Under the pieces are notes generated by a model. That model searched no databases and was not told where the DNA came from. It saw only the letters and a program-made list of their open reading frames with translations. 64,000 nt of DNA from Ignavibacteriae bacterium HGW-Ignavibacteriae-2 (GTDB lineage Bacteria; Bacteroidota; Ignavibacteria; Ignavibacteriales; Melioribacteraceae), in contig PGYT01000003.1 in assembly GCA_002839805.1 (NCBI GenBank), forward strand, positions 84,139-148,138, read 5' to 3'. Position 1 is the first letter of the stretch. The number at the start of each line of letters is the position of its first letter. This document shows, piece by piece, positions 15,826 to 59,926 of the stretch. The translations under genes were made by a program, and so were the position numbers.

Positions 15826-18624
15826 ATGCAAATAAAAATATTATTAACCGCATTAATTTTATCCATTTGGTTAAATTTATCGGCGCAAGTTGTTACTACA
15901 ATGCCTTCCTTCGCCACAGAAAAAGATTCAATTACAATTATATTCGACGCTACAAAAGGTGATCAGGGACTAAAAGGTTATACCGGAAATGTATACGCTC
16001 ATACCGGTGTAACCATTAATGGAAAAAGATGGCAAAACGTAATAGGAAATTGGGGGGATGATTATGCTCAACCCAAATTAATAAAAGTAGCTACGGATTT
16101 ATATCATCTTGTAATTGGCAAACCACACGATTTTTATAATGTAAATCAATCTACCAAAATTACCGAGTTAAGTTTCGTGTTTAGAGGTTCCGGATCTTCA
16201 GCGCCAACAGGAAGGGATTTTGGGGGAGCTGATATATTTGTACCACTTTATGAACAGTCTCTTAGCGTAGCTTTAATTGAACCTTCTGAAGATTTTAGTT
16301 TTGTAAAATTGAATCAAAGTATAAATATAACAGCCATTAGTAAATTATCAACGCAGTTGAGTCTTTACGCAAATAACCAATTAATTAGTTCAACAGAAAA
16401 AGATTCAATTACATATTCATTTTTAGCGGCAGAGGCCGGTAAAAGTATCATAAAGGCGGTTGCGAAAAACTCCGCAGGACAAAGCGTTTCGGATTCATTG
16501 GTTATTATAGTAAGAAAAGAAACCGCCATTGCCGAATTGCCTGATGGTATAAAATACGGAATAAACTATATTGATAATTCAACCGTCACACTTGCACTAA
16601 ATGCTCCATATAAAGAGTTTGTTTATGTTGGTGGTGATTTTAATGATTGGGAAATTGATCCGAATTATGAATTAAAACTAACACCAGACAAATCCGTTTA
16701 CTGGATCACACTTACTGGTTTAACCCCGAATAAAGAATATGGTTTTCAATATTTAGTTGACGGAAATATAGTAATTCAGGATCCTTATGCGGATAAAATA
16801 CTTGACCCATGGAATGATTCTAATATACCAGCGAGCGTTTACCCAAATCGTATGCCATATCCTTTTGGGAAAACCGACGGCATTGTATCTGTATTTCAAA
16901 CAAATCAAAAAGAGTATGCGTGGAAGGTAAATAATTTTAAGAGACCCCCAAAAGATAATCTGGTTATTTATGAACTATTAGTTAGAGATTTTGTGAGTAC
17001 TCACAGTTACAAAACCCTTACGGACACGCTCGACTATTTCGTTAAACTTGGTATAAATGCCATTGAACTGATGCCTGTAAACGAATTTGAAGGAAATGAA
17101 AGTTGGGGGTATAATCCAATGATGTATTTTGCCCCAGATAAATATTACGGAACAAAAGATGATTTGAAGGCTTTTATTGACGCGGCTCACGAAAAAGGAA
17201 TAGCAGTAATTTTAGACATGGTCTTAAATCATGCGTACGGACTTAACCCCATGGTTCGTTTGTATTTTGATAACGCCAATAATCGTCCTTCTCCAGCAAA
17301 CCCCTGGTTTAATATAACATCACCTAATCCGGTTTTTTCCTGGGGATACGATTTTAATCATGAAAGACAGGCTACAAAAGATTTTATTGACAGAGTTAAC
17401 AAATATTGGTTGGAAGAATATAAAGTGGACGGATTTCGATTCGATTTTACAAAAGGATTTACAAATACCTCAGGCGACGGCAGCGCATATGATAATGATC
17501 GTATTGCTATTTTGAAAAGAATGTCAGAAAAAATTTGGGAATATGATTCCACAGCCTATGTAATACTTGAACATTTTGCTCAAAATACTGAAGAAAAAGT
17601 ACTTTCTGACTATGGAATGATGCTATGGGGGAATATAAACGGGAATTACAATGAGGCCACAATGGGTTATAACGAAAGCGGTAAGTCCAATTTCTCGGGA
17701 GTTTCTTATCAGACAAGGGGATGGACAAAACCTAATCTTGTGGGTTATATGGAAAGCCACGATGAAGAGCGGCTGATGTACAAGAACCTTCAATATGGAA
17801 ATTTTTCAGGTGATTATATAATTAAAAATCTTCATACCGCATTGGACAGAATAAAATTAGCAGCGGCCTTTTTTATTACTGTTCCCGGTCCAAAAATGTT
17901 ATGGCAGTTTCAAGAATTGGGATATGATTATTCTATAGATTTTAATGGTCGCGTCGGCAATAAACCAATACGTTGGGATTATTATGAGGACGTTTACAGA
18001 CGAAATCTTAATAAAACGATAGCGGCTCTTATAAATCTCAAAACCAAATATCCTGTGTTCGGAACACGTGATTTTACTTTAAATGTTTCAGGATCTGTAA
18101 AAAAAATTAGTCTTAACCACGAAACAATGAGCGTACTAATAGTGGGTAATTTTGATGTTGTTGAAAAAAGTATTTCATACGGGTTTAAACATACAGGCAA
18201 ATGGTATAATTATTTTGAAGACGATTCTATTGATGTTACAGATACAGAAATTTTAGTTTCCTTAAAACCTGGTGAATTTAAATTGTTAACCGATGTTAAA
18301 TTGCCCGCGCCCGAAGCTAACATTTTAACAGGCATTAAAAAAATTAATTCCGAAATACCCTCATCTTATAGTTTGTCGCAAAACTACCCCAATCCGTTTA
18401 ATCCGAGTACTAAAATTAAATATAGTATTTCGGCAGGCGGAAATGTTTCATTAAAAATATATGATATGCTTGGGCAGGAAATTAAAACACTTGTTGAAAA
18501 ATATCAAAATGAAGGAGTCTACGAAGTATCATTTGCATCAGAAAATTTTACTAGCGGCGTATATTTTTATCGTTTAGAAATAAACGGCTTTAAGGACTCC
18601 AAAAAATTTATATTACTCAAATAA
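15826..18624 (+). CDS. secreted GH13 alpha-amylase-family enzyme with T9SS sorting domain
   Basis: A 932-residue exported glycoside hydrolase acting on alpha-glucans. After the signal peptide (residues 1-20) come a beta-sandwich domain (25-140, with TGNVYAHTGVTINGKRW), an Ig-like domain and an E-set/CBM48-like domain near 265-350 (VYVGGDFNDWEI). The GH13 barrel runs from about 380 to 760: VLNHAYG, the nucleophile region DGFRFDFTKGF near residue 537, the acid/base region VILEHF near 578, and ESHDEER near 643. The last 85 residues are a type A sorting domain with QNYPNPFNPSTKIKY, directing export through the type IX system. It follows the outer-membrane barrel gene and may share its transcript. 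Confidence 0.88.
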   Translation: MQIKILLTALILSIWLNLSAQVVTTMPSFATEKDSITIIFDATKGDQGLKGYTGNVYAHTGVTINGKRWQNVIGNWGDDYAQPKLIKVATDLYHLVIGKPHDFYNVNQSTKITELSFVFRGSGSSAPTGRDFGGADIFVPLYEQSLSVALIEPSEDFSFVKLNQSINITAISKLSTQLSLYANNQLISSTEKDSITYSFLAAEAGKSIIKAVAKNSAGQSVSDSLVIIVRKETAIAELPDGIKYGINYIDNSTVTLALNAPYKEFVYVGGDFNDWEIDPNYELKLTPDKSVYWITLTGLTPNKEYGFQYLVDGNIVIQDPYADKILDPWNDSNIPASVYPNRMPYPFGKTDGIVSVFQTNQKEYAWKVNNFKRPPKDNLVIYELLVRDFVSTHSYKTLTDTLDYFVKLGINAIELMPVNEFEGNESWGYNPMMYFAPDKYYGTKDDLKAFIDAAHEKGIAVILDMVLNHAYGLNPMVRLYFDNANNRPSPANPWFNITSPNPVFSWGYDFNHERQATKDFIDRVNKYWLEEYKVDGFRFDFTKGFTNTSGDGSAYDNDRIAILKRMSEKIWEYDSTAYVILEHFAQNTEEKVLSDYGMMLWGNINGNYNEATMGYNESGKSNFSGVSYQTRGWTKPNLVGYMESHDEERLMYKNLQYGNFSGDYIIKNLHTALDRIKLAAAFFITVPGPKMLWQFQELGYDYSIDFNGRVGNKPIRWDYYEDVYRRNLNKTIAALINLKTKYPVFGTRDFTLNVSGSVKKISLNHETMSVLIVGNFDVVEKSISYGFKHTGKWYNYFEDDSIDVTDTEILVSLKPGEFKLLTDVKLPAPEANILTGIKKINSEIPSSYSLSQNYPNPFNPSTKIKYSISAGGNVSLKIYDMLGQEIKTLVEKYQNEGVYEVSFASENFTSGVYFYRLEINGFKDSKKFILLK

Positions 18625-25404: not shown

Positions 25405-25486
25405 ATCATACCTCGCGCATTGTTGGGAAAATTTTAATATTAGTACTTGAAAAATATTCCCGATTATACCCAATTACAAATACATA

Positions 25487-28400
25487 TTATAACTTACGCG
25501 CAACAACTAAAACTTTTTTAATTGTTTCAATCAGTCCCGAATTATTTCCGAAGACTTCTAGGAGTATAATATACATTCCAATGCCAAGCGGACGTCCTTT
25601 ATCATCCAACCCATCAAATATAACATTCCCATGTGACCCACTGGGCGTATTATTTGTTAAAGTTCTTACTTTACGTCCTAAATCATCAAATATACGAATT
25701 CTTATCTGTGCAGTTTCGGAATTTAATTTATAACTGATTATTGTGAAGTCCTGAAAACCATCATTATCAGGTGAAAACGGATTCGGCTCTATATTAAATT
25801 TAGATTCAAATTCGGTTTGTTCGGTATATATTGAATTAATTTCTGCCGGAGTAGCTCCTTTAGAGTCCACTGATGAACTCCAATTCATCGGATTATTCGA
25901 ATTCAATGCGGGATTGATTCTTTCGATCGAGATATCTTTTTTGTTTATAATGTTTCGATTATGCCAATTCGGGTTATAATTTAAGGAATCAATTATGTTT
26001 CCTTTAATATCCTTTAGAAGAAGCATTTCCCCGCTGTTTGAAAAGCCAAGATCGGGTTTATTGATTATTTTTATATTTTCAAATTCGGTTAAATGGGAGT
26101 AATAGTTGAGAATGGAACTGTCCGCTGAAAGAAGAAAAAAATTACCTGAATGTAAAATGTAGTTGGAGTTTGATAAACGTAACTGATTATTTGTTTCGTC
26201 CACGATAGTCCAGCCGCCCAAATCCAGATCGTAATCGCTGTTATTAAATAATTCGATAAACTCACAATTCCCTTCTGAGGGCTCGTACATAATTTCATTA
26301 ATTACTGCTGCGTGTTTTTCATAACCATTAGTTAAGCTGATAGAATTAATAAAGCCCGGTGTTCCCCTGGAAATATTTAATGACGGCGACCAATTTATAG
26401 GATCGCTGGATGTATTCTCTGTATTAAACCTTTCCATCGAATGACCGTAAATAAAATTCCAGGTTCTATTATAAAATAAACTGTCAATAATGGCCTCGTT
26501 AAAGTCATAAATTATAATTCCATCCTCCGTGTTGCCAAGCGTCCCAAAATTAGTCTCGAAAATTTTTATTTCTTTTGAATTTACAAATAATGCTGAGTCT
26601 CGGCACACAATAAAAAATTCTCCCGGCATAATAAACGTATCATCTTTACTTATAATATTTTTTGTTGGACTTGTGAGAACATCGCTGACCGCCCAGTTGA
26701 TTAAATTTATAGTATCGTTTGTAGTATTTAAAAATTCAATCCATTCACTTTCTCCTGTAAATGGTTGATGATTAAATTCATTAATTACAATCGATTTTCT
26801 ATCAAATCCCGGTGATAGTTCTATTTGGTCCGCGTTATTTGCGTTCATCTCGTCAAACTGATAAAGTATTTCAACAGATAAACCCATTGTTTTAGTAAGC
26901 AGAAATGAAGAAGAAGACGTAACAATAAGAGAATCATTTGGCAGCAATGTTAAACCAGTTATTTCACTTAAATAAGTGGTGGTTTGTCCATCAGTAAGAC
27001 TGAAAGAAACCGAAAAATTTTCGGCAATTTCTTTTCCTTCATTTTTAATTAATACCGAAGGGATTACAGTTTCGTTCAGAATAGGAAATGGCGGGTCAAT
27101 TATTATGCGGGAAAGTTTTAAGTCATATTTTTTTTTGACAATACTATTAATTCTACCGGGTGTGCTTTTTTCTAAATCCGTTGATGACGCCCAGTTCAAT
27201 ATATTATCGCTGCTGACGGATACATCCAATCTTTCCAGCGATTGCCCGTTTGATCCGCTAATAGAAGAATTGTACATCACTGAGTCCATTGTTCTGCCAA
27301 CAAAGTCTTTTATTACAATTCCGTCAATATCATTATTCAGATTTGAGAAATTAACTATTAATAATTGCGATGGAATATCAGTGTGAAAATTATAAATCGA
27401 AGTGTCTTTGGAAACCACCGTAAATGATTTAGGAAGAGCATATAATCTGCTCGAGGAAAGTTGTGTGGATTTTGGCGTGGTTAATAGATCAGTTACACTC
27501 CAGTTTTGCAGATTGATTTTGTGATCAGAATTATTAAATAATTCAAACCATTCGGGCTCATTATTCCATGGATTGTAATGAATTTCATTAATTACAATTG
27601 ATCCGACTGGAAATATCGGCGCCACGGAATTATAAAATTTATTATTCCCTGGATGCTCGTCAGAATTTAATTCGGCGATAGCAAGATATCCTTTTTCCTG
27701 GGTTATGTTGGTAAGTGTATATCCAAAATCAATTATCGTGGAATCGCCAGAATTAAGATTTATGTTTTCAATTTTATCAACAAGGGAATTAGAAATACTA
27801 TCAAGATCTGTGTCTTCAAAGAGTGAGAGTGAAAAAATAATTGAATTTTTACCTGAGTTTTTAACTGCTGCGGAAATATTCACATCTTGTCCCAGCTTTG
27901 GATTAGTTGGCGAAAAAAATAATTCAATAATTGCGGCATCTATATTTTTAAGACTGATAGAATTTAACTTCCCCGGTGAGCCACCTTGTTTTAGAGCGCA
28001 TATTCCCCAGTTTGTGGAATCGTTTGAGGATTTTTCAGTGTCAATTCTTTCTAAAGAATTTCCAACTTTATATCCCCAGGTGCTTTTATAATTTACTGAA
28101 TCTATTGCCTGATCTATATAATTTAGTAGTTTCACTTGATCGTTTGTATTGCTGAGCGAGGGAAGATCAGTTGTTATAATATTAGTTAAATCTTCATAAG
28201 TTTGATAAAAACCAGAATCACTCGCGAATATAAAAAATTCATTCGGACCAATGCTCAGTGGATAATCAATTATTAACATTGTATCCGCATTATCGGCCAA
28301 TTTATAATTTTGAATATTTATATTTTTTAGGCTCCTGTTATATATCTCAATCCATTCGGGTTCTGGCGAAATTGGTGCGTACATAATCTCATTTATTACA

Positions 28401-41730: not shown

Positions 41731-43815
41731 TTAGTTCCAATTATCTATGAGAATAATTTTTTCATCGGCACCAAATAGAATTAGTGTATCGTCAGGTTTA
41801 ATTTTATAATGAGCATCCGGAATTATAATTTCTTCTTCAACTTCGTTAAGGAAAGTGTTTTTATTCTTTATCATTAATACTTCCAATCCATATGTGTTTC
41901 TTAATTTAAGTTCCACAAGAGTCTTCCCGACAAAACTTTGGGGGGCTTTCTTTTCAATAATTGAATAACCTTCGGCAACTTTAGATAAAGATGTTTTTTC
42001 AATTGAACGTAATTCGCTCGCCAAACCGTCTGTGATATTATATTTAAGGCTGGCTCTATTATAGGCGGTTATGGCATTCTGTCTTCGTATAGTCCCTAAA
42101 ATTTTATTGGAATCAGAAACCGAGACTACAGGAAATTGATCTAACTGACTATTGCCGAATAATTTAAACACATGATCCAATGTGTCTTCATCTGTAACTT
42201 TAATTACTTCAGAACGGGCTATATCACTTGCTACTACCATCTCTCGCAGCGAGTCGTATTCTGTTATTATTGGGCGAAGCTCATTTTCTGTAATGGTTCC
42301 TGCTAATTTGTTTTCCGAATTAATTGTATAAAACACACTATGAGGGCTATCTAGTAGTTGAGCTATCAATTTAGGAAGCGGTGTTTGGGCAGGTATCAAA
42401 GTTACATCGGGAGTCATAACATCGCTTACCAAAATAGAATTTAGAATATTAACTTCACGTCCACTTGAAATGCGATAGCCTTCCTGTTCCAAATGTTTTA
42501 TATGTATTGAGCCTTTTATAACAAGCTGCACTACTGTTGTGCTTATTACTACCGCGAGCATAAGAGGTAATATAAAGCTATAATCCTTTGTCATTTCAAA
42601 TATTATTAGTATTGCGGAAATAGGAATCGAGTTAATACCACCAAGAACAGCTCCCATGGAAACAAGAACAAATGTGGTTGGGTCAATGTTTAATCCCCAA
42701 AACGTATTAACAACAATTGAAAATAAATATCCAAATGCGGCGCCAATAAAAAGCGATGGGGCGAATACACCTCCAAAACCACCGGAGTGCAGAATAAGAG
42801 GAACAAGAATAAATTTCATAACAAGAAGTACGGCGGCAACCTGCCATGTTATATTAGAAGCTAATATTTTGTTAATTGCTGGATAACCTATTCCGAATAT
42901 ATCGCTGTAAAAATATCCACAAATACCAACAATAATACCTATTAAGGACATCAGTGCCCAGCGGGGCATTATTTTAAGAAGCTTTTTATTAAATAATTGG
43001 GACACAGATTCCGAATAATTGATGTACATAATGGAAACGATTCCGGCAAGAAGACCCATAATTGCGAATAAATAGTAATGTTCGTAATGTCCAACTTCAG
43101 GAATATCAAACTGAAACGCTGGTTGATTTCCTAAAAATATACGTGATATTGCGCTAGCGGTTACAGAAGCAAGTATTAGTGCAGAAAAAGTTGCTGATTG
43201 AAAATCGTTGAGTAAAATAATTTCGAGAGCAAAAAAAACACCTCCCAAAGGTGTGTTAAAGACAGCGGATATAGCGGCGCCAGCCCCAGCAGCGGTAAAC
43301 ATACGTCTACGTGAATCCGATAAGCCAATCATCTGCCCCAATTTACTTGCAACCCCTCCGCCTAACTGAGCGGCCGGACCCTCTGGACCAACTGTTCCTC
43401 CGGAACCCATAGAGATAACAGGCGCAAAAAAGTGAAAAACAGTCGTGCTGAAAGGAATATAACCGCCACGTGTTGCCACCGCTTTAATAACTTCTCCAAC
43501 ACTCCGCTTTTTAGCTGTTTTAGGGGCAAAATATATCATAATGCTTTGTATGATCATACCGATGGCAGGAATAAGAATAACCGCAGCTCCACCAAGAAAG
43601 AAAAAAACCTTTTTGCCATAATTGAAAAATATATATTCAAATAAATTTATACTTTCATGAAACAATACTGCAGCAAGTCCGACCAAAGCCCCTGTTATTA
43701 CAGCCAGAACACTAAACATAGTGTACTCAGGCATCGAAAATTCGTTTAGCTTGCTTTGCAATCTTGAAAAAAAGGCTCTAAACTTTGCTCGCTGTTTTTT
43801 TGGGGGGCTATACAT
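41731..43815 (-). CDS. ClC-type chloride channel/transporter with CBS and RCK_C domains
   Basis: A 694-residue membrane protein with a ClC core (residues 30-445). The selectivity-filter stretch MGSGGTVGPEGPAAQLGGGV and GGVFAPSLFIGAAFGYLF are recognisable, as is GAGAAISAVFNTPLGGVFFALE. The Glu in GPEGP corresponds to the gating glutamate. Two CBS motifs follow (VSDVMTPDVTLIPAQTPLPK, residues 465-580), then a TrkA-C-like domain (FVGKTLVELKLRNTYGLEVL, 625-690), suggesting ligand control of chloride or proton-coupled exchange. Whether it is a channel or an exchanger is not settled. The signal-peptidase homologue gene lies 36 bases upstream on the same strand. Confidence 0.9.
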   Translation of the reverse strand: MYSPPKKQRAKFRAFFSRLQSKLNEFSMPEYTMFSVLAVITGALVGLAAVLFHESINLFEYIFFNYGKKVFFFLGGAAVILIPAIGMIIQSIMIYFAPKTAKKRSVGEVIKAVATRGGYIPFSTTVFHFFAPVISMGSGGTVGPEGPAAQLGGGVASKLGQMIGLSDSRRRMFTAAGAGAAISAVFNTPLGGVFFALEIILLNDFQSATFSALILASVTASAISRIFLGNQPAFQFDIPEVGHYEHYYLFAIMGLLAGIVSIMYINYSESVSQLFNKKLLKIMPRWALMSLIGIIVGICGYFYSDIFGIGYPAINKILASNITWQVAAVLLVMKFILVPLILHSGGFGGVFAPSLFIGAAFGYLFSIVVNTFWGLNIDPTTFVLVSMGAVLGGINSIPISAILIIFEMTKDYSFILPLMLAVVISTTVVQLVIKGSIHIKHLEQEGYRISSGREVNILNSILVSDVMTPDVTLIPAQTPLPKLIAQLLDSPHSVFYTINSENKLAGTITENELRPIITEYDSLREMVVASDIARSEVIKVTDEDTLDHVFKLFGNSQLDQFPVVSVSDSNKILGTIRRQNAITAYNRASLKYNITDGLASELRSIEKTSLSKVAEGYSIIEKKAPQSFVGKTLVELKLRNTYGLEVLMIKNKNTFLNEVEEEIIIPDAHYKIKPDDTLILFGADEKIILIDNWN

Positions 43816-43851
43816 TATAAAATTCTTGAGTTTTTTATTAAATCTAATTAA

Positions 43852-44649
43852 TTATTTTAAAAGATTTCCTACACGATTCAAATTATTAGACCAGTATATG
43901 TAGAGAGGTTTTCCAAAAATATTACTCCGGACTACTACGCCAAAATACCTGCTATCTCTACTGTCGCCTCTGTTATCTCCCATAAGAAAATAATTGTTCC
44001 GCGGTACTACTAATGAATCAAGCTCATCTGTGTTATTTATTCCAGAATTATAATAAACGTAATTTTCGATAAGCCTATTGCCGTTTATGTAGACGATATT
44101 ATTCATAAAGTATAAAGTATCGCCTGGTAATCCAATTATTCTACCAATATAACGTGCTGATGGATCATCGGGAGGATTATAAATTACTAAGTCAAGTCTT
44201 TCAATTGGTTCTTGACGCCGATCAATTTTAATTATTAAATAATCACCCGTTTGTATTGTTGGCAACATATTAGCCGTTGGTACGTAGGCAGTTTGAAATG
44301 CGACAACAGGTTCAAGAAAAATAAATACACTTGTTGTAAAAATAAGAGAAACAACAATAAAACCTATATATATGTACCACCTACCTAAAAGTTTAGGCTT
44401 ATTTATATTCGGTTCTCTAGCTTGGGAGGCAGCATGAAATACAACAGATATCCTTAATAAAATGAGGAACAGCAGCCCTAATGCAAAAGAAAAAAACTGA
44501 GATAATATTCCACTTAAATAAAATAGAATTATAAGTGTCTGAAAAACAAAATAAATTAACAAACCCTGTATTACTTTACCGTTATAAATTTGTCCAAGTC
44601 CAGCGTCAATTGTTGATAATAATCCAGCCCAAAGTTGATTTTTTTTCAT
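43852..44649 (-). CDS. signal peptidase I (S26) homologue lacking both catalytic residues
   Basis: A 265-residue membrane protein. Residues 1-75 form a TM2-like helical pair (GLGQIYNGKVIQGLLIYFVF); one more helix lies near 92-115 (WYIYIGFIVVSLIFTTSVFIF). The S26 fold follows in order, ending in box E MGDNRGDSRDSRYFG. In box B the active Ser (SMxPT) is Asn127 in NMLPT, and the general-base Lys (KR before GLPGD) is Gly169 in YIGRIIGLPGD. It should therefore not cleave signal peptides, like SpsA of Staphylococcus aureus. The start at 44649 (GAGAAC upstream) is preferred over 44661. Confidence 0.85.
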   Translation of the reverse strand: MKKNQLWAGLLSTIDAGLGQIYNGKVIQGLLIYFVFQTLIILFYLSGILSQFFSFALGLLFLILLRISVVFHAASQAREPNINKPKLLGRWYIYIGFIVVSLIFTTSVFIFLEPVVAFQTAYVPTANMLPTIQTGDYLIIKIDRRQEPIERLDLVIYNPPDDPSARYIGRIIGLPGDTLYFMNNIVYINGNRLIENYVYYNSGINNTDELDSLVVPRNNYFLMGDNRGDSRDSRYFGVVVRSNIFGKPLYIYWSNNLNRVGNLLK

Positions 44650-44713
44650 ATTTGTTCTCATAAATTATTGACGGGCTAAATTTAATTTGTGCTGGTTATA
44701 AACATCCGTAAAA

Positions 44714-46420
44714 TTACTTCGCAAATAAAATTTTCCCGCCCACAATAGTCATTAATACCTCGGTGGAAAGAATTTCTTTATCGGGGATGGTTAGTATATC
44801 TTTAGACAAAACAGTAAAATCCGCGAGTTTCCCTTTTTCTATTGAACCTTTTATATTTTCTTCAAAAGCGGCGTACGCTCCATTGATGGTATAAGATTTT
44901 AATGCTTCAAGTCTAGTCATTTTTTGATCTTTAAAAAATATTTCACCCGATTTGAGCTGTCGAGTAACTGTTGAATAAAATGATTGAAGCGGACTTACAT
45001 TTTCAACCGGGGCGTCTGTACCATTGCAAATAATCGCACCGTTATCAATAAGTTTACGCCACACATAAGCTCCTTCTTCCGCTCTTTTATAACCCAGTCG
45101 TTTAATTACAAAAGGCGCGTCAGATGTGCAATGAACCCCCTGCATGGCAGGAATAACCCCAAGTTTAGAGAATCGTAAAATATCCTTAGTGGATAAATGT
45201 TGCGCGTGTTCAACGCGCCATCGAAAATTATTGATGCTGGTGTTTTGTGAAAATATATCTTCATAAATATCTAATATTTCGCGATTACCTCTATCTCCAA
45301 TTGCATGGGTGCAAAGCTGGTACCCGTTAGTTAACGCGAGTTCCGCAACTTCGCGAATTTCAGAGAGAGGAGTTACAGTTAAACCTCTATGATCTTGTAA
45401 ATCTTCATAAGGTTCAAGGAGCCAAGCACCTCTGGAGCCAAGCGCGCCATCAATGTATATTTTAATCGACCGTATTGTTAAAAAATTGTTGCCATAACCT
45501 ATGGTTTTATAATTAACCAGGTTTTTACGCAAATTTTTTAACGTATCCCCGACCATAACGTACAATCTAATTTTAATTTTATTTTCATCGACAAGCTTTT
45601 TAAGTATATCGATTTTAGCGAAAGTCTCCCCGGCATCATGGAAACTTGTAATACCATTTTTCAAACTTTCATCAACACCCGAAATTATTTCACGCTCAGT
45701 TTGTCTGTTTAATTGCTCACTATTCTGTAGGGACAAATATTGGAGATATTTGTTATTAATTAAATCTTCGGCGGTTTCTTCGAAAACTCCAATAATCTGT
45801 CCGTTCTCATCTTTAACAATATTTCCCCCCTCAGGACTTTTTGTTGAGTCTGTAACTTCTGCCAAATCAATAGCTTTTTGATTAACCAATATCGCGTGAC
45901 CACTCGCATGAGATAATATTACGGGGTTATATGGAACGGCTTTATTAAGCATAGTATTATAAGGATAACCATTAACAGTTTTATGCGGAACTGTATTCCA
46001 TTTTTCCTGATGCCAGCCGCGTCCAATTATCCAATCACCCGGTTTTGTATTTTCGGATGCAGCGACAACTTTCGCGATAACTTCATCCCAATTTTGCGTG
46101 TCAGTTAAATCAAGATTAATTTTTGATTTGCCTAATCCTATTAGATGCGCGTGACTTTCAATGAATCCAGGAATTACAGTTTTCCCTTTAAGATCAATTA
46201 TTTCTGTAGATTCACCGATAAATTCCTTTATTTGATAATCCGTACCCACCGCAATAATTGTATCGGATTTAACAGCTACGGCCGTTGCCTTAGAATCGGC
46301 GTTGTTAAGCGTAATAATATTTCCGTTTAACAAAACTAGGTCAGCAGATTCTTTTGGGGAATTGCATGCATTAAAACCAATCATAAGTAAAGTAATTAAA
46401 ATCTTATTTAAGCTTTTCAT
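44714..46420 (-). CDS. amidohydrolase family lipoprotein (YtcJ-like)
   Basis: A 568-residue metal-dependent hydrolase with a lipoprotein signal ending at Cys19 (GFNAC). After the N-terminal beta domain (VLLNGNIITLNNADSKATAV) come the HxH metal pair in ESHAHLIGLGKSKINLD, later His residues in HAIGDRGNREILDIY and VEHAQHLS, and the Asp in NGTDAPVENVSP. The overall pattern matches the YtcJ/exoenzyme-regulator (amidohydrolase 3) group. Its substrate is unknown. It should be anchored in the outer or inner membrane facing the periplasm. It stands alone between the signal-peptidase homologue and the OMP gene. Confidence 0.82.
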   Translation of the reverse strand: MKSLNKILITLLMIGFNACNSPKESADLVLLNGNIITLNNADSKATAVAVKSDTIIAVGTDYQIKEFIGESTEIIDLKGKTVIPGFIESHAHLIGLGKSKINLDLTDTQNWDEVIAKVVAASENTKPGDWIIGRGWHQEKWNTVPHKTVNGYPYNTMLNKAVPYNPVILSHASGHAILVNQKAIDLAEVTDSTKSPEGGNIVKDENGQIIGVFEETAEDLINNKYLQYLSLQNSEQLNRQTEREIISGVDESLKNGITSFHDAGETFAKIDILKKLVDENKIKIRLYVMVGDTLKNLRKNLVNYKTIGYGNNFLTIRSIKIYIDGALGSRGAWLLEPYEDLQDHRGLTVTPLSEIREVAELALTNGYQLCTHAIGDRGNREILDIYEDIFSQNTSINNFRWRVEHAQHLSTKDILRFSKLGVIPAMQGVHCTSDAPFVIKRLGYKRAEEGAYVWRKLIDNGAIICNGTDAPVENVSPLQSFYSTVTRQLKSGEIFFKDQKMTRLEALKSYTINGAYAAFEENIKGSIEKGKLADFTVLSKDILTIPDKEILSTEVLMTIVGGKILFAK

Positions 46421-46649
46421 GGTGTTCCATGTGTAAGATTCAAAAAAATATTAAGACCTGTAAAGATAACATATTTAGCATGGTTGGAAAATATTTAACT
46501 GATTATTTAGAACAAATATCAAATTGAATGACTTTGATAAAAATTAATCTTTAGTTTCAATTGAAGTTATATTTTAATTACAAAACTAATTTAACTTGAC
46601 CGGTGGAATGGAGGAATAAAAAACTATTGAGGTGCCTGAAGATACAAGC

Positions 46650-46683
46650 AAAAAATTAGAGGATTGGAATTATTCCAACCCTC
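46650..46683 (-). terminator. intrinsic terminator after the OMP gene
   Basis: The minus strand reads a stem of GAGG plus TTGGAA with TTCCAA plus CCTC (one mismatch between them), a short loop and then a T-run (plus-strand A-run at 46651-46655). It starts 12 bases after the stop codon of the outer membrane protein gene at 46695. Confidence 0.75.
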
Positions 46684-46694
46684 ATTAAAATTTG

Positions 46695-47600
46695 TTAAAA
46701 TGTAAGTGTAACACCAAACTTAAATTGTTCGTAAGTTAATGGTTCCGCAGTAGAGAATGGCCAATTCATTTTATCTTTTCGCAATTGGAATATTGCATAC
46801 TGATATCCACCACGTAATAACACATTCATTAGAGGGCCTGCTGCGGGAACACGATCCATTATTTTTTCTACAAATTCCCCCAATGCTGCGTAACCTGCCT
46901 CTTCAATTACAAAACTACCGGCCATTTTCCAAAATTTTACTCTTGGATATAATACGGTGCCTTCGTAAGAAGCGTTAACCGCAAGCATACTCGCTAATTC
47001 CAATTTCACCCCGACTTCGCCTAAAGAACCAAAACGGAATGAATCGCCATAGTAATCAATTATTTCCTGCGGTGAACTTAACTCCATGTAACCAACAGGA
47101 ATCGGTTCGTTCCTTTCCAACTTATTAAACTTTGAGAGCATATAGGCATTCTGTGTGTAAGGTATTAGCGCAACAGGTCCAATACGATATCCATAACCTT
47201 CAGTGTAACCGAAACCTAGCCTGTATGATTCGCTTTTGTATTGAAAGCTCTCAACTTTGTTATCCGCAATAAGAGTATTGCTTAATTTCGATCCGAAAAT
47301 ATATCGACTGTCAAGTTCCAGAATATAATCATCAGAATAAAAATCGAGATCACTGTAACCTAATTTTAATTCAATTGAACCGATATCGGCAAAACGGTTT
47401 TGATCGAAACTTTTGTGCTCAAGGTTTCCAGTTCCATAGTTTAACTCAATCATAGGTCGTGATTCACCATACCATTCAATCAAATCAACGTTCCATTTAT
47501 CCCAACTTCTTTTGTGTTTTTCGCGTTTTGATTGAGCCTGAATTAGAATTCCTGACAGCAACAAGGTAATAATAATAAGTTTAAAGACTCTGACTGACAT
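46695..47600 (-). CDS. outer membrane beta-barrel protein, unknown
   Basis: A 301-residue exported protein with a signal peptide (residues 1-22, ending IQAQ). The mature part has repeated amphipathic strands with aromatic ends (YRLGFGYTEGYGYRIGPVAL, VKLELASMLAVNASYEGTVLY) and a final strand EQFKFGVTLTF ending in Phe, the usual signal for BAM insertion. The family is not recognised. It follows the response regulator gene on the same strand after 98 bases, but a regulatory link is not shown. Confidence 0.65.
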   Translation of the reverse strand: MSVRVFKLIIITLLLSGILIQAQSKREKHKRSWDKWNVDLIEWYGESRPMIELNYGTGNLEHKSFDQNRFADIGSIELKLGYSDLDFYSDDYILELDSRYIFGSKLSNTLIADNKVESFQYKSESYRLGFGYTEGYGYRIGPVALIPYTQNAYMLSKFNKLERNEPIPVGYMELSSPQEIIDYYGDSFRFGSLGEVGVKLELASMLAVNASYEGTVLYPRVKFWKMAGSFVIEEAGYAALGEFVEKIMDRVPAAGPLMNVLLRGGYQYAIFQLRKDKMNWPFSTAEPLTYEQFKFGVTLTF

Positions 47601-58900: not shown

Positions 58901-59896
58901 ATGTTCGTTGATTCGTATAATAATAACATTTCAATAGCCGTTGAATCTGCGTTGTATTCAAAGGGAATTGTTAAATTCAAAGCGCGAACCGAATTACTGC
59001 CCGAGGCAAATTATAAAATTATACTTAAACCCGAGATTAAGGATACCGAAGGATTGTTATTCAGCGATAATATGGAGATAAATTTTAGAACCGCCGCTGC
59101 AGCCGATTTCAACGGCACTGTTTTTTATGATTTTGAAAATGATACCGATTGGATCAATCCTAAGGAGAACGGCAAATCCATTGGAGTGGACTATATTAAC
59201 ACCAATTATTACAGGGATAATAAATATTCTAAAAACGGTTTAAATTCAGGCGCGCTTCGTTATAAATTTAAAGGGGTAAATGGTGTTTGTGTTCTGGAAC
59301 CCAATTACGATATGATTATTGAGAATAAAAACAATTTTGCCATTTGGGTTTATGGGGATTTTAGTAACAATGTTCTTGAGTATACTTTTTCCGATGTAAA
59401 TAATAACTTTTATCAAATTTTGGCAGACACTATTAAATGGACAGGCTGGCAACTGGTTAGTGTTACTCTGGATTCTTTACGAAATGTTGCCGGTTTAAAA
59501 TTTAATTCTCTCTCTGTCGTACAGTCCAATACCGGTGCATACGAAGGTCTAATATATCTTGATGATATTCAAACTGATATTATTTTATCCTCGGAGGAAG
59601 CAAATACATTGCCTCTCGAATTTGCACTTAAACAAAACTATCCTAATCCTTTTAATCCCGTTACAACTATTCAATACAGTTTTCCTGCCAATGTTGGAAC
59701 TCTTAGTGGTGCTTCGGTTCGGTTAGCGGTGTATGATGTGCTTGGGAGAGAAGTTACTGTCTTAGTTAATGAATTTCAGAAACCGGGATCATATAAAATT
59801 GACTTTGATGCCTCTGGAATTTCGAGCGGTGTATATATTTACCGTTTAAAAATAAACTCATTTGTGAGCGCGAAAAAATTAGTACTTTTAAAATAA
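56000..59896 (+). CDS. giant secreted protein: PD40 propeller, C39-like peptidase, Big_5, T9SS domain
   Basis: A 1298-residue exported protein. The signal peptide is residues 1-24. Residues 30-340 look like a TolB/PD40 propeller (WSPKGNDILFESVNAKIYFF, NPKWSPDSKSILYN). A C39-like papain-fold domain spans 350-550, with Cys in YLCCGAASAMEVIASYG (about residue 382), His in DGHIVVAIG (about 500) and Asp/Asn in CNDPYG. Big_5-like Ig domains (PANSQTGISPSSHVFVNFYG) alternate with two carbohydrate-binding-like beta-sandwiches (GIWLFGDCSNNSIELWF, FAIWVYGDFSNNVLEYTF). The end is a type A sorting domain with QNYPNPFNPVTTIQY. It may cleave peptides or cell-wall cross-links; the substrate is unknown. Confidence 0.85.
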   Translation: MNNFFKYLSYLITSSLIFLGTTIGSNKSSNSPEGYLINPIVTPYGIVVSNEFENVLYLITEESIKPLVEAPGCGRYIKFSKDYSSIGLKIINPENGMQRPAVFDLKEMRLNFLSDWVKKSGQVSFTQNGKTAFMLDEWLYVKDDVSADKYDLKVFSNNTAISPDGFNVVYKDDADQLWIYNLPTASRQKITDSENGYYNAQWSPKGNDILFESVNAKIYFFNYETGIKFIAEGENPKWSPDSKSILYNRKEIDFANVRLINSDLYIYNLSANEENRITNSADQFEMNASFNSDGNEIVFDTYSGREIKKIYLTKHNDESAELIFKLKERLQINSNKTFNKAAENINIPADLDEWVHIHQVLDTRDSGSWTSDPKNGRHQGYLCCGAASAMEVIASYGILPPSPITTRGHISNYGKYISDAYTYNGFTYSGFTTTSTNPGFPTGAHGFMWNYGSPHSNAVSFLTNHGIEAVLSDDMNWSKVKAELDTGFPYILCSTGLTDGHIVVAIGQNQNYHSLYCNDPYGDKNAGSYGSILNGKNAIYDWADENTGHVKITPVVWGITARYSKTLQLLSSYPANSQTGISPSSHVFVNFYGQVNPETVKNNIHLMSENGNILDYSFDSDKCSEGVVELIPFNELDENSNYTVYINNKIENSKGQQFKRNEQIQFRTGSERKYIGDLLDGFESKQNWSLNTSGISGDETNTTITSDQIKDEQFSLRLNYKFSGTSNGFVRFLYSPELKVDPAKTLGIWLFGDCSNNSIELWFTSAGSLVRGLSKVVDWSGWKFIELPLNQLNLASGATFNCFALRQSSNAQKSGTIYFDGLMLTEAYAQIVTCFPSIDEKNVSLNSDIVIGFSCPMDSISLKNAFKISPEVSGILKWINGDNKLLFTPTELYEGNTIYSVYIDSSAKALDGPDLSYTHFYSFTTKRNKLSLVANYPYMNENNVSTIFDVILQFDNPINPLSLSGNIMFVDSYNNNISIAVESALYSKGIVKFKARTELLPEANYKIILKPEIKDTEGLLFSDNMEINFRTAAAADFNGTVFYDFENDTDWINPKENGKSIGVDYINTNYYRDNKYSKNGLNSGALRYKFKGVNGVCVLEPNYDMIIENKNNFAIWVYGDFSNNVLEYTFSDVNNNFYQILADTIKWTGWQLVSVTLDSLRNVAGLKFNSLSVVQSNTGAYEGLIYLDDIQTDIILSSEEANTLPLEFALKQNYPNPFNPVTTIQYSFPANVGTLSGASVRLAVYDVLGREVTVLVNEFQKPGSYKIDFDASGISSGVYIYRLKINSFVSAKKLVLLK

Positions 59897-59926
59897 AATC
59901 TCAAATTCGTTGCAGCGGAACCCTAG

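What the first reader, a model, noticed from the sequence alone, without database searches (positions are those of the whole stretch)
43852..44649. Signal peptidase I homologue with both catalytic residues replaced (Ser to Asn, Lys to Gly)
The S26 fold is clear (conserved PTxNMxPT, GLPGD and MGDNRGDSRDSR blocks), but the box B serine of SMxPT is Asn127 and the general-base lysine before the GLPGD motif is Gly169. Reading the codons directly on the minus strand (AAT for Asn, GGT for Gly) makes a miscall unlikely. The N-terminus carries an added TM2-like helical pair. SpsA of S. aureus is a known inactive homologue. This one could be a substrate-binding, scaffolding or regulatory pseudo-peptidase.
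Basis: partly seen in the sequence, partly recalled or inferred. Interest (0 to 1): 0.75.

Follow-up and report, generated by a model that had tools for sequence, protein, structure and literature searches.

The report
Dead signal peptidase kept by selection
This gene encodes a membrane protein built like signal peptidase I, the enzyme that trims exported proteins, but it has lost both residues that do the cutting while keeping the residues that shape its peptide groove, so it probably binds or escorts an exported protein instead of cutting it.

Summary
ORF 43852-44649(-) is an S26/type I signal peptidase homologue with Asn127 (AAT) at the nucleophile and Gly169 (GGT) at the general base; boxes B-E are otherwise intact. 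It is the middle gene of an amidohydrolase / S26 / ClC-channel unit. A second genus (G017) has the same three-gene order; its orthologue also has Gly at the Lys site but keeps Ser. So the Lys loss is shared and older; Ser-to-Asn is known only here. The congener G001 and three g19 genomes have amidohydrolase and ClC adjacent without the S26 gene. Both orthologues stayed open, so the gene is probably selected, though fast-evolving and dispensable. Of 158 distinct S26 ORFs examined, 149 have Ser/Lys. Genus g34 carries an independently dead tandem SPase (Asn/Leu) under purifying selection (dN/dS 0.16). No canonical lepB was found in this assembly, but neither were lepA and the block around it, so an assembly gap is likelier. 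Closest known analogues: S. pyogenes SipA (Ser to Asp, Lys to Gly; no peptidase activity, needed for pilus polymerisation) and S. aureus SpsA. Most likely a non-catalytic peptide-binding pseudo-SPase with an extra N-terminal helical pair; client unknown.

The parts
43852..44649 (-). pseudo-signal peptidase I (S26 homologue), 265 aa; alternative in-frame ATG at 44661
44419..44595 (-). extra N-terminal helical pair (residues 19-77), TM2/DUF5683-like GLGQIYNGK motif
   Evidence: helices H19-47 and H52-77 in a low-confidence model; DUF5683 only 13.9 bits, below the cut-off; shared with relatives
44302..44394 (-). third helix (residues 86-116), corresponding to the membrane anchor before the S26 domain
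   Evidence: placement as membrane anchor is inferred
44257..44283 (-). box B, VPTANMLPT (canonical PSGSM/PTGSM)
44269..44271 (-). codon AAT, Asn127, in place of the nucleophilic Ser (E. coli Ser90)
44119..44157 (-). box D, ARYIGRIIGLPGD (canonical xxYVKRxxGLPGD)
44143..44145 (-). codon GGT, Gly169, in place of the general-base Lys (E. coli Lys145)
43939..43983 (-). box E, MGDNRGDSRDSRYFG (Gly, Asp, Asn, Ser, Asp, Arg of the canonical box kept)
44714..46420 (-). upstream co-directional amidohydrolase (Amidohydro_3); lipoprotein-like start FNACNS
   Evidence: Pfam 3e-95; same neighbour in G017
41731..43815 (-). downstream co-directional ClC channel/transporter with CBS and TrkA_C
   Evidence: Pfam 2e-86; same neighbour in G017
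46659..46683 (-). terminator-like hairpin upstream of the amidohydrolase; the only one found in 43500-46900
   Evidence: 1 found against 2.2 expected in shuffles: weak

Best explanation
A catalytically dead type I signal peptidase (pseudo-SPase I). Three N-terminal helices anchor it in the inner membrane with the S26 domain on the outer (periplasmic) face. It keeps the substrate-groove frame (V123, M128, I132, Y167, I168; box E intact) but has no Ser/Lys dyad, so it should bind signal-peptide-like or extended segments of one or a few exported clients without cutting them, acting as a docking, chaperone or assembly factor as SipA does for streptococcal pilins. Shown: sequence, fold family, loss of both residues, shared synteny and shared Lys loss with G017, both ORFs kept open, absence in a congener. 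Inferred: membrane topology, inability to cleave, peptide binding, chaperone role. Client unknown; the amidohydrolase and ClC protein of the same transcription unit are the first candidates.
For: S26 domain far above cut-offs. Foldseek best PDB matches are SPase I structures, with SipA 4n31 at rank 5 (E=6.5e-8, TM 0.68 normalised by target). Asn/Gly at the dyad with flanking groove residues kept. G017 orthologue: same gene order, Lys site Gly, intact 293-codon gene. Under no selection fewer than 0.1% of such frames stay open after 0.2 substitutions per site, whereas S26 amino-acid-changing divergence G000-G017 is dN 0.66; differences by codon position 0.53/0.35/0.70 are those of a constrained protein. 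An independent dead SPase in genus g34 is under purifying selection, dN/dS 0.157, separate in the tree. Precedent: SipA has Asp48/Gly85, no peptidase activity, a kept peptide groove, and is essential for pilus polymerisation (PMC4049620).
Against: No assay. Substrate binding is by analogy only. The gene is absent from G001 and evolves about twice as fast as its neighbours in amino-acid changes (pN 0.44 against 0.21 and 0.29), so its role is dispensable and loosely constrained. Box B and box E of the G017 orthologue are more degraded (IAASSM, SDNR), so the groove is not uniformly kept. The structure model is weak (mean pLDDT 59.6). The codon-position test rests on a protein-guided alignment at 34% identity, and dS is saturated.
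Confidence: 0.6

Rival explanations
1. Regulatory pseudo-SPase: it occupies signal peptides or pairs with the active LepB and tunes its activity or specificity, instead of assisting one client.
For: Groove frame kept; in genus g34 a dead SPase sits beside active ones in one lepA-linked cluster, which fits co-assembly with active enzyme.
Against: P0001's gene is not linked to lepB in G000 or G017; absent from G001, with no room for a remnant.
Confidence: 0.2
2. A relic: a horizontally acquired or duplicated SPase inserted between amidohydrolase and ClC, now decaying without a function.
For: Patchy: 3 of 79 family genomes have a full-length relative; fast evolution; absent from G001.
Against: Intact frames in two genera long after the shared Lys loss; codon-position pattern; shared motifs GKPLYIYWS/SKPLYIYWS and LNRVG/FNRIG.
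Confidence: 0.12
3. A still active peptidase with an unusual mechanism, for example Asn as nucleophile or a dyad formed by other residues.
For: The fold and box E are intact; an Asn also sits at the nucleophile site in the independently altered g34 copies, although Ser AGY to Asn AAY is one base change.
Against: No Lys or His at the general-base site in G000, G017 or g34. G017 has Ser where G000 has Asn, so an Asn mechanism is not conserved. I know of no S26 enzyme with an Asn nucleophile. In SipA, mutating the residue at the Ser site had no effect on function (PMC4049620).
Confidence: 0.04
4. This protein is the only SPase I of the organism and has replaced LepB.
For: No other SPase I hit in a genome rated 99.92% complete, by PF10502 (its second, weak hit is a LexA/S24-like repressor), TIGR02227 or LepB of G001 up to E=10.
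Against: lepA, the S8 peptidase, the methyltransferase and two upstream genes of the conserved block were also not found; in relatives lepA lies beside lepB. Three other draft genomes of the family also show no S26 hit at the threshold used.
Confidence: 0.03

Closest known systems
Streptococcus pyogenes SipA (PDB 4n31, 4k8w; PMC4049620)
   Same: S26 fold, both dyad residues lost, the Lys site is also Gly, peptide groove kept; no peptidase activity reported there
   Different: Ser site is Asp48, not Asn; encoded in a pilus locus; no extra N-terminal helical pair is described in the passages read; a Gram-positive protein. P0001 has no pilus or sortase gene beside it
Staphylococcus aureus SpsA (described as inactive and dispensable in PMC12445088)
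   Same: SPase I homologue lacking the conserved catalytic residues
   Different: Adjacent to spsB (own knowledge); P0001 is in an amidohydrolase-ClC unit. Not compared by sequence here
Canonical SPase I / LepB (TIGR02227, PF10502; E. coli 1b12, B. anthracis 4nv4)
   Same: Boxes B-E order, groove residues, membrane-anchored domain
   Different: No Ser nucleophile and no Lys general base
N-terminally extended S26 proteins with intact Ser/Lys (G016, G250, G233, a gammaproteobacterial MAG)
   Same: Same domain layout over the full length, 28% (G016) and 36% (MAG) identity
   Different: They keep the dyad, so the architecture predates the loss of catalysis
Dead tandem SPase of genus g34 (G035, G048)
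   Same: Asn at the Ser site, Lys lost, frame kept under purifying selection
   Different: Lys to Leu, no extra N-terminal helices, next to active lepB copies; separate origin in the tree

Membership tests
Type I signal peptidase, catalytic (MEROPS S26A; TIGR02227) | S26 domain over the curated cut-off | tested here: met
Type I signal peptidase, catalytic (MEROPS S26A; TIGR02227) | Ser nucleophile in box B | tested here: not met
   Asn127, AAT
Type I signal peptidase, catalytic (MEROPS S26A; TIGR02227) | Lys general base in box D | tested here: not met
   Gly169, GGT
Type I signal peptidase, catalytic (MEROPS S26A; TIGR02227) | cleaves signal peptides | not testable with these tools
   needs an enzyme assay
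Inactive SPase-I-like proteins (SipA/SpsA kind) | SPase-I fold without Ser-Lys dyad | tested here: met
Inactive SPase-I-like proteins (SipA/SpsA kind) | maintained frame in more than one lineage | tested here: met
   G000 and G017
Inactive SPase-I-like proteins (SipA/SpsA kind) | kept peptide-binding groove | tested here: inconclusive
   groove residues kept in P0001, less so in G017; model of low confidence
SipA proper (pilus assembly) | encoded in a pilin/sortase locus | tested here: not met
   neighbours are an amidohydrolase and a ClC protein
TM2 / DUF5683 domain | profile match over the curated cut-off | tested here: not met
   DUF5683 13.9 bits against 26.7; resemblance only

The most novel reading that the evidence does not exclude
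In this bacterial family, dead SPase I paralogues have arisen at least twice and have been kept as dedicated, non-cutting signal-peptide receptors that escort specific exported proteins in a Gram-negative envelope, a role for which the nearest precedent I know is SipA in Gram-positive pilus assembly.
Probability: 0.25. Interest if true: 0.65.

Novelty: new variant of a known kind. Interest (0 to 1): 0.42.

Why it matters
Automatic annotation would call this an active signal peptidase I (132.8 bits against a cut-off of 47), and in this assembly it is the only such hit, so a reader would wrongly take it for the essential enzyme. If it is a selected pseudo-SPase, it extends the SipA/SpsA kind to an envelope with very different export traffic, with an added membrane domain and a different gene neighbourhood, and the g34 clusters offer a natural comparison of active and dead copies side by side.

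Tried and rejected
Sequencing error: rejected for Lys to Gly (three bases from any Lys codon; G017 also Gly); unlikely but not excluded for Ser to Asn (one base). Archaeal/ER-type (TIGR02228) or S24/LexA proteins as a replacement SPase in G000: only S24/LexA-like repressors and hits below the cut-off. Sole-SPase hypothesis: weakened by the equally missing lepA block. Flank search for the edges of the supposed gap: a CheB-like gene was found inside a contig without the block, so the gap itself was not located. G001 gap between amidohydrolase and ClC: about 48 nt, no room for an S26 remnant. The genome-contig scan gave one relative; the viral-contig scan gave ten relatives, of which two were read in detail and are canonical. 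Literature searches for dead SPases in Bacteroidetes or Ignavibacteria found none on the point. The lineage was not identified by name; abundant sorting-domain hits suggest the Bacteroidota/Ignavibacteria area (inference).

Full report
OBSERVATION. Window 43852-44649(-) translates to 265 aa, with an alternative in-frame ATG at 44661. It is an S26 protein: Pfam Peptidase_S26 128.7 bits against 22.9, TIGR02227 132.8 against 47. Against solved SPase I structures the catalytic Ser aligns with Asn127 and the catalytic Lys with Gly169 (codons AAT and GGT). The surrounding box residues are conserved: VPTANMLPT, YIGRIIGLPGD, MGDNRGDSRDSRYFG.

FOLD AND ARCHITECTURE. An AlphaFold2 model from four sequences has low confidence (mean pLDDT 59.6, pTM 0.46): helices 19-47, 52-77 and 86-116, then a beta-rich domain. 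Foldseek still places SPase I structures on top, including SipA 4n31 at rank 5. The extra N-terminal helical pair has a GLGxxYxGK motif resembling TM2/DUF5683, but the DUF5683 match is below its cut-off. The same full-length layout with an intact Ser/Lys dyad occurs in G016 and a gammaproteobacterial MAG, and in more distant class members, so the architecture came first and the loss of catalysis later.

RELATIVES AND SYNTENY. A search of all 79 held family genomes finds full-length relatives only in G000, G017 and G016. G017 has amidohydrolase - S26 - ClC in the same order; identities to G000 are 58%, 34% and 69%. Its S26 has Ser kept and Lys replaced by Gly (GGA). In G001, of the same genus, amidohydrolase and ClC are adjacent with about 48 nt between them and no S26 gene; three g19 genomes show the same adjacency. 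The LepB tree places G001 and G017 as neighbours, so the simplest history is one insertion before g1 and g16 split, loss of Lys, later Ser to Asn in G000, and loss of the gene in G001; two separate insertions cannot be excluded. P0001 and the G017 protein group together (95/81), although both have long branches.

SELECTION. Under no selection, open frames of this length are nearly all lost by 0.2 substitutions per site, while the two S26 proteins differ at dN 0.66. Codon-position differences of 0.53/0.35/0.70 are those of a protein under constraint. Synonymous sites are saturated, so no dN/dS could be given for this pair. The gene evolves faster than its neighbours (pN 0.44 against 0.29 and 0.21).

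HOW RARE. Of 158 distinct S26 ORFs from the loci held, 149 have Ser/Lys and 4 are truncated before box B. Five lack one or both: G000 (Asn/Gly), G017 (Ser/Gly), G035 and G048 (Asn/Leu), G224 (Ser/Ser). The sample is made of best hits and paralogues, not a random draw. In G048 the dead copy lies between two active SPases directly after lepA; in G035 the dead copy and one active copy are seen on a short contig. The g34 dead copies are sisters of an active g34 copy (98/97), hence an independent loss, with dN/dS 0.157 against 0.074 for the active copy.

IS THERE A CANONICAL LEPB IN THIS GENOME? None was found by PF10502, TIGR02227 or the G001 LepB. But lepA (only a 35% match to another GTPase), the body of the S8 peptidase and the methyltransferase, and the upstream HAD and metallophosphatase genes at E<=1e-20 were not found either. 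In relatives these genes form one block with lepB and lepA lies beside lepB in most loci. A stretch missing from the assembly is therefore the likelier reason. The gap was not located.

MECHANISM. The pattern 'groove kept, dyad lost' is that of SipA, where the Ser site is Asp48, the Lys site is Gly85, no peptidase activity is detected, and the protein is essential for pilus polymerisation (PMC4049620). S. aureus SpsA is another inactive, dispensable homologue (PMC12445088). By analogy P0001 most likely binds an exported client without cutting it. This step is inferred. The transcription unit (no terminator-like site inside it) makes the amidohydrolase and the ClC protein the first candidates.

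VERDICT. A real, correctly described pseudo-SPase I, probably under selection, of a known kind (inactive SPase I homologues) but with a new residue pair, an added membrane domain, a new gene neighbourhood and a new lineage. The client and function remain to be shown.

Noticed in passing
L181 4776-5651 (-) and L182 80-967 (+): Genus g34 carries an independently dead SPase (Ser to Asn, Lys to Leu, box E Ser to Cys) in tandem with active SPases near lepA; dN/dS 0.157.
   Followed up: yes
L183 3778-4917 (-): G224 has an N-terminally extended S26 protein with Lys replaced by Ser and SDNR in box E: a possible third case.
   Followed up: partly
window 18352-18624 (+), 25463-25786 (-), 59594-59899 (+): Matches to a C-terminal sorting-type domain; the whole genome shows over 100 such matches, which suggests heavy use of a type IX-like secretion route.
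   Followed up: no
genome G000, contig C45:25112-27124 (outside the window): A second ClC paralogue, 33% identical to the one in the window.
   Followed up: no
genome G000: lepA and its neighbours were not found in an assembly rated 99.92% complete: completeness scores do not rule out missing essential genes.
   Followed up: partly
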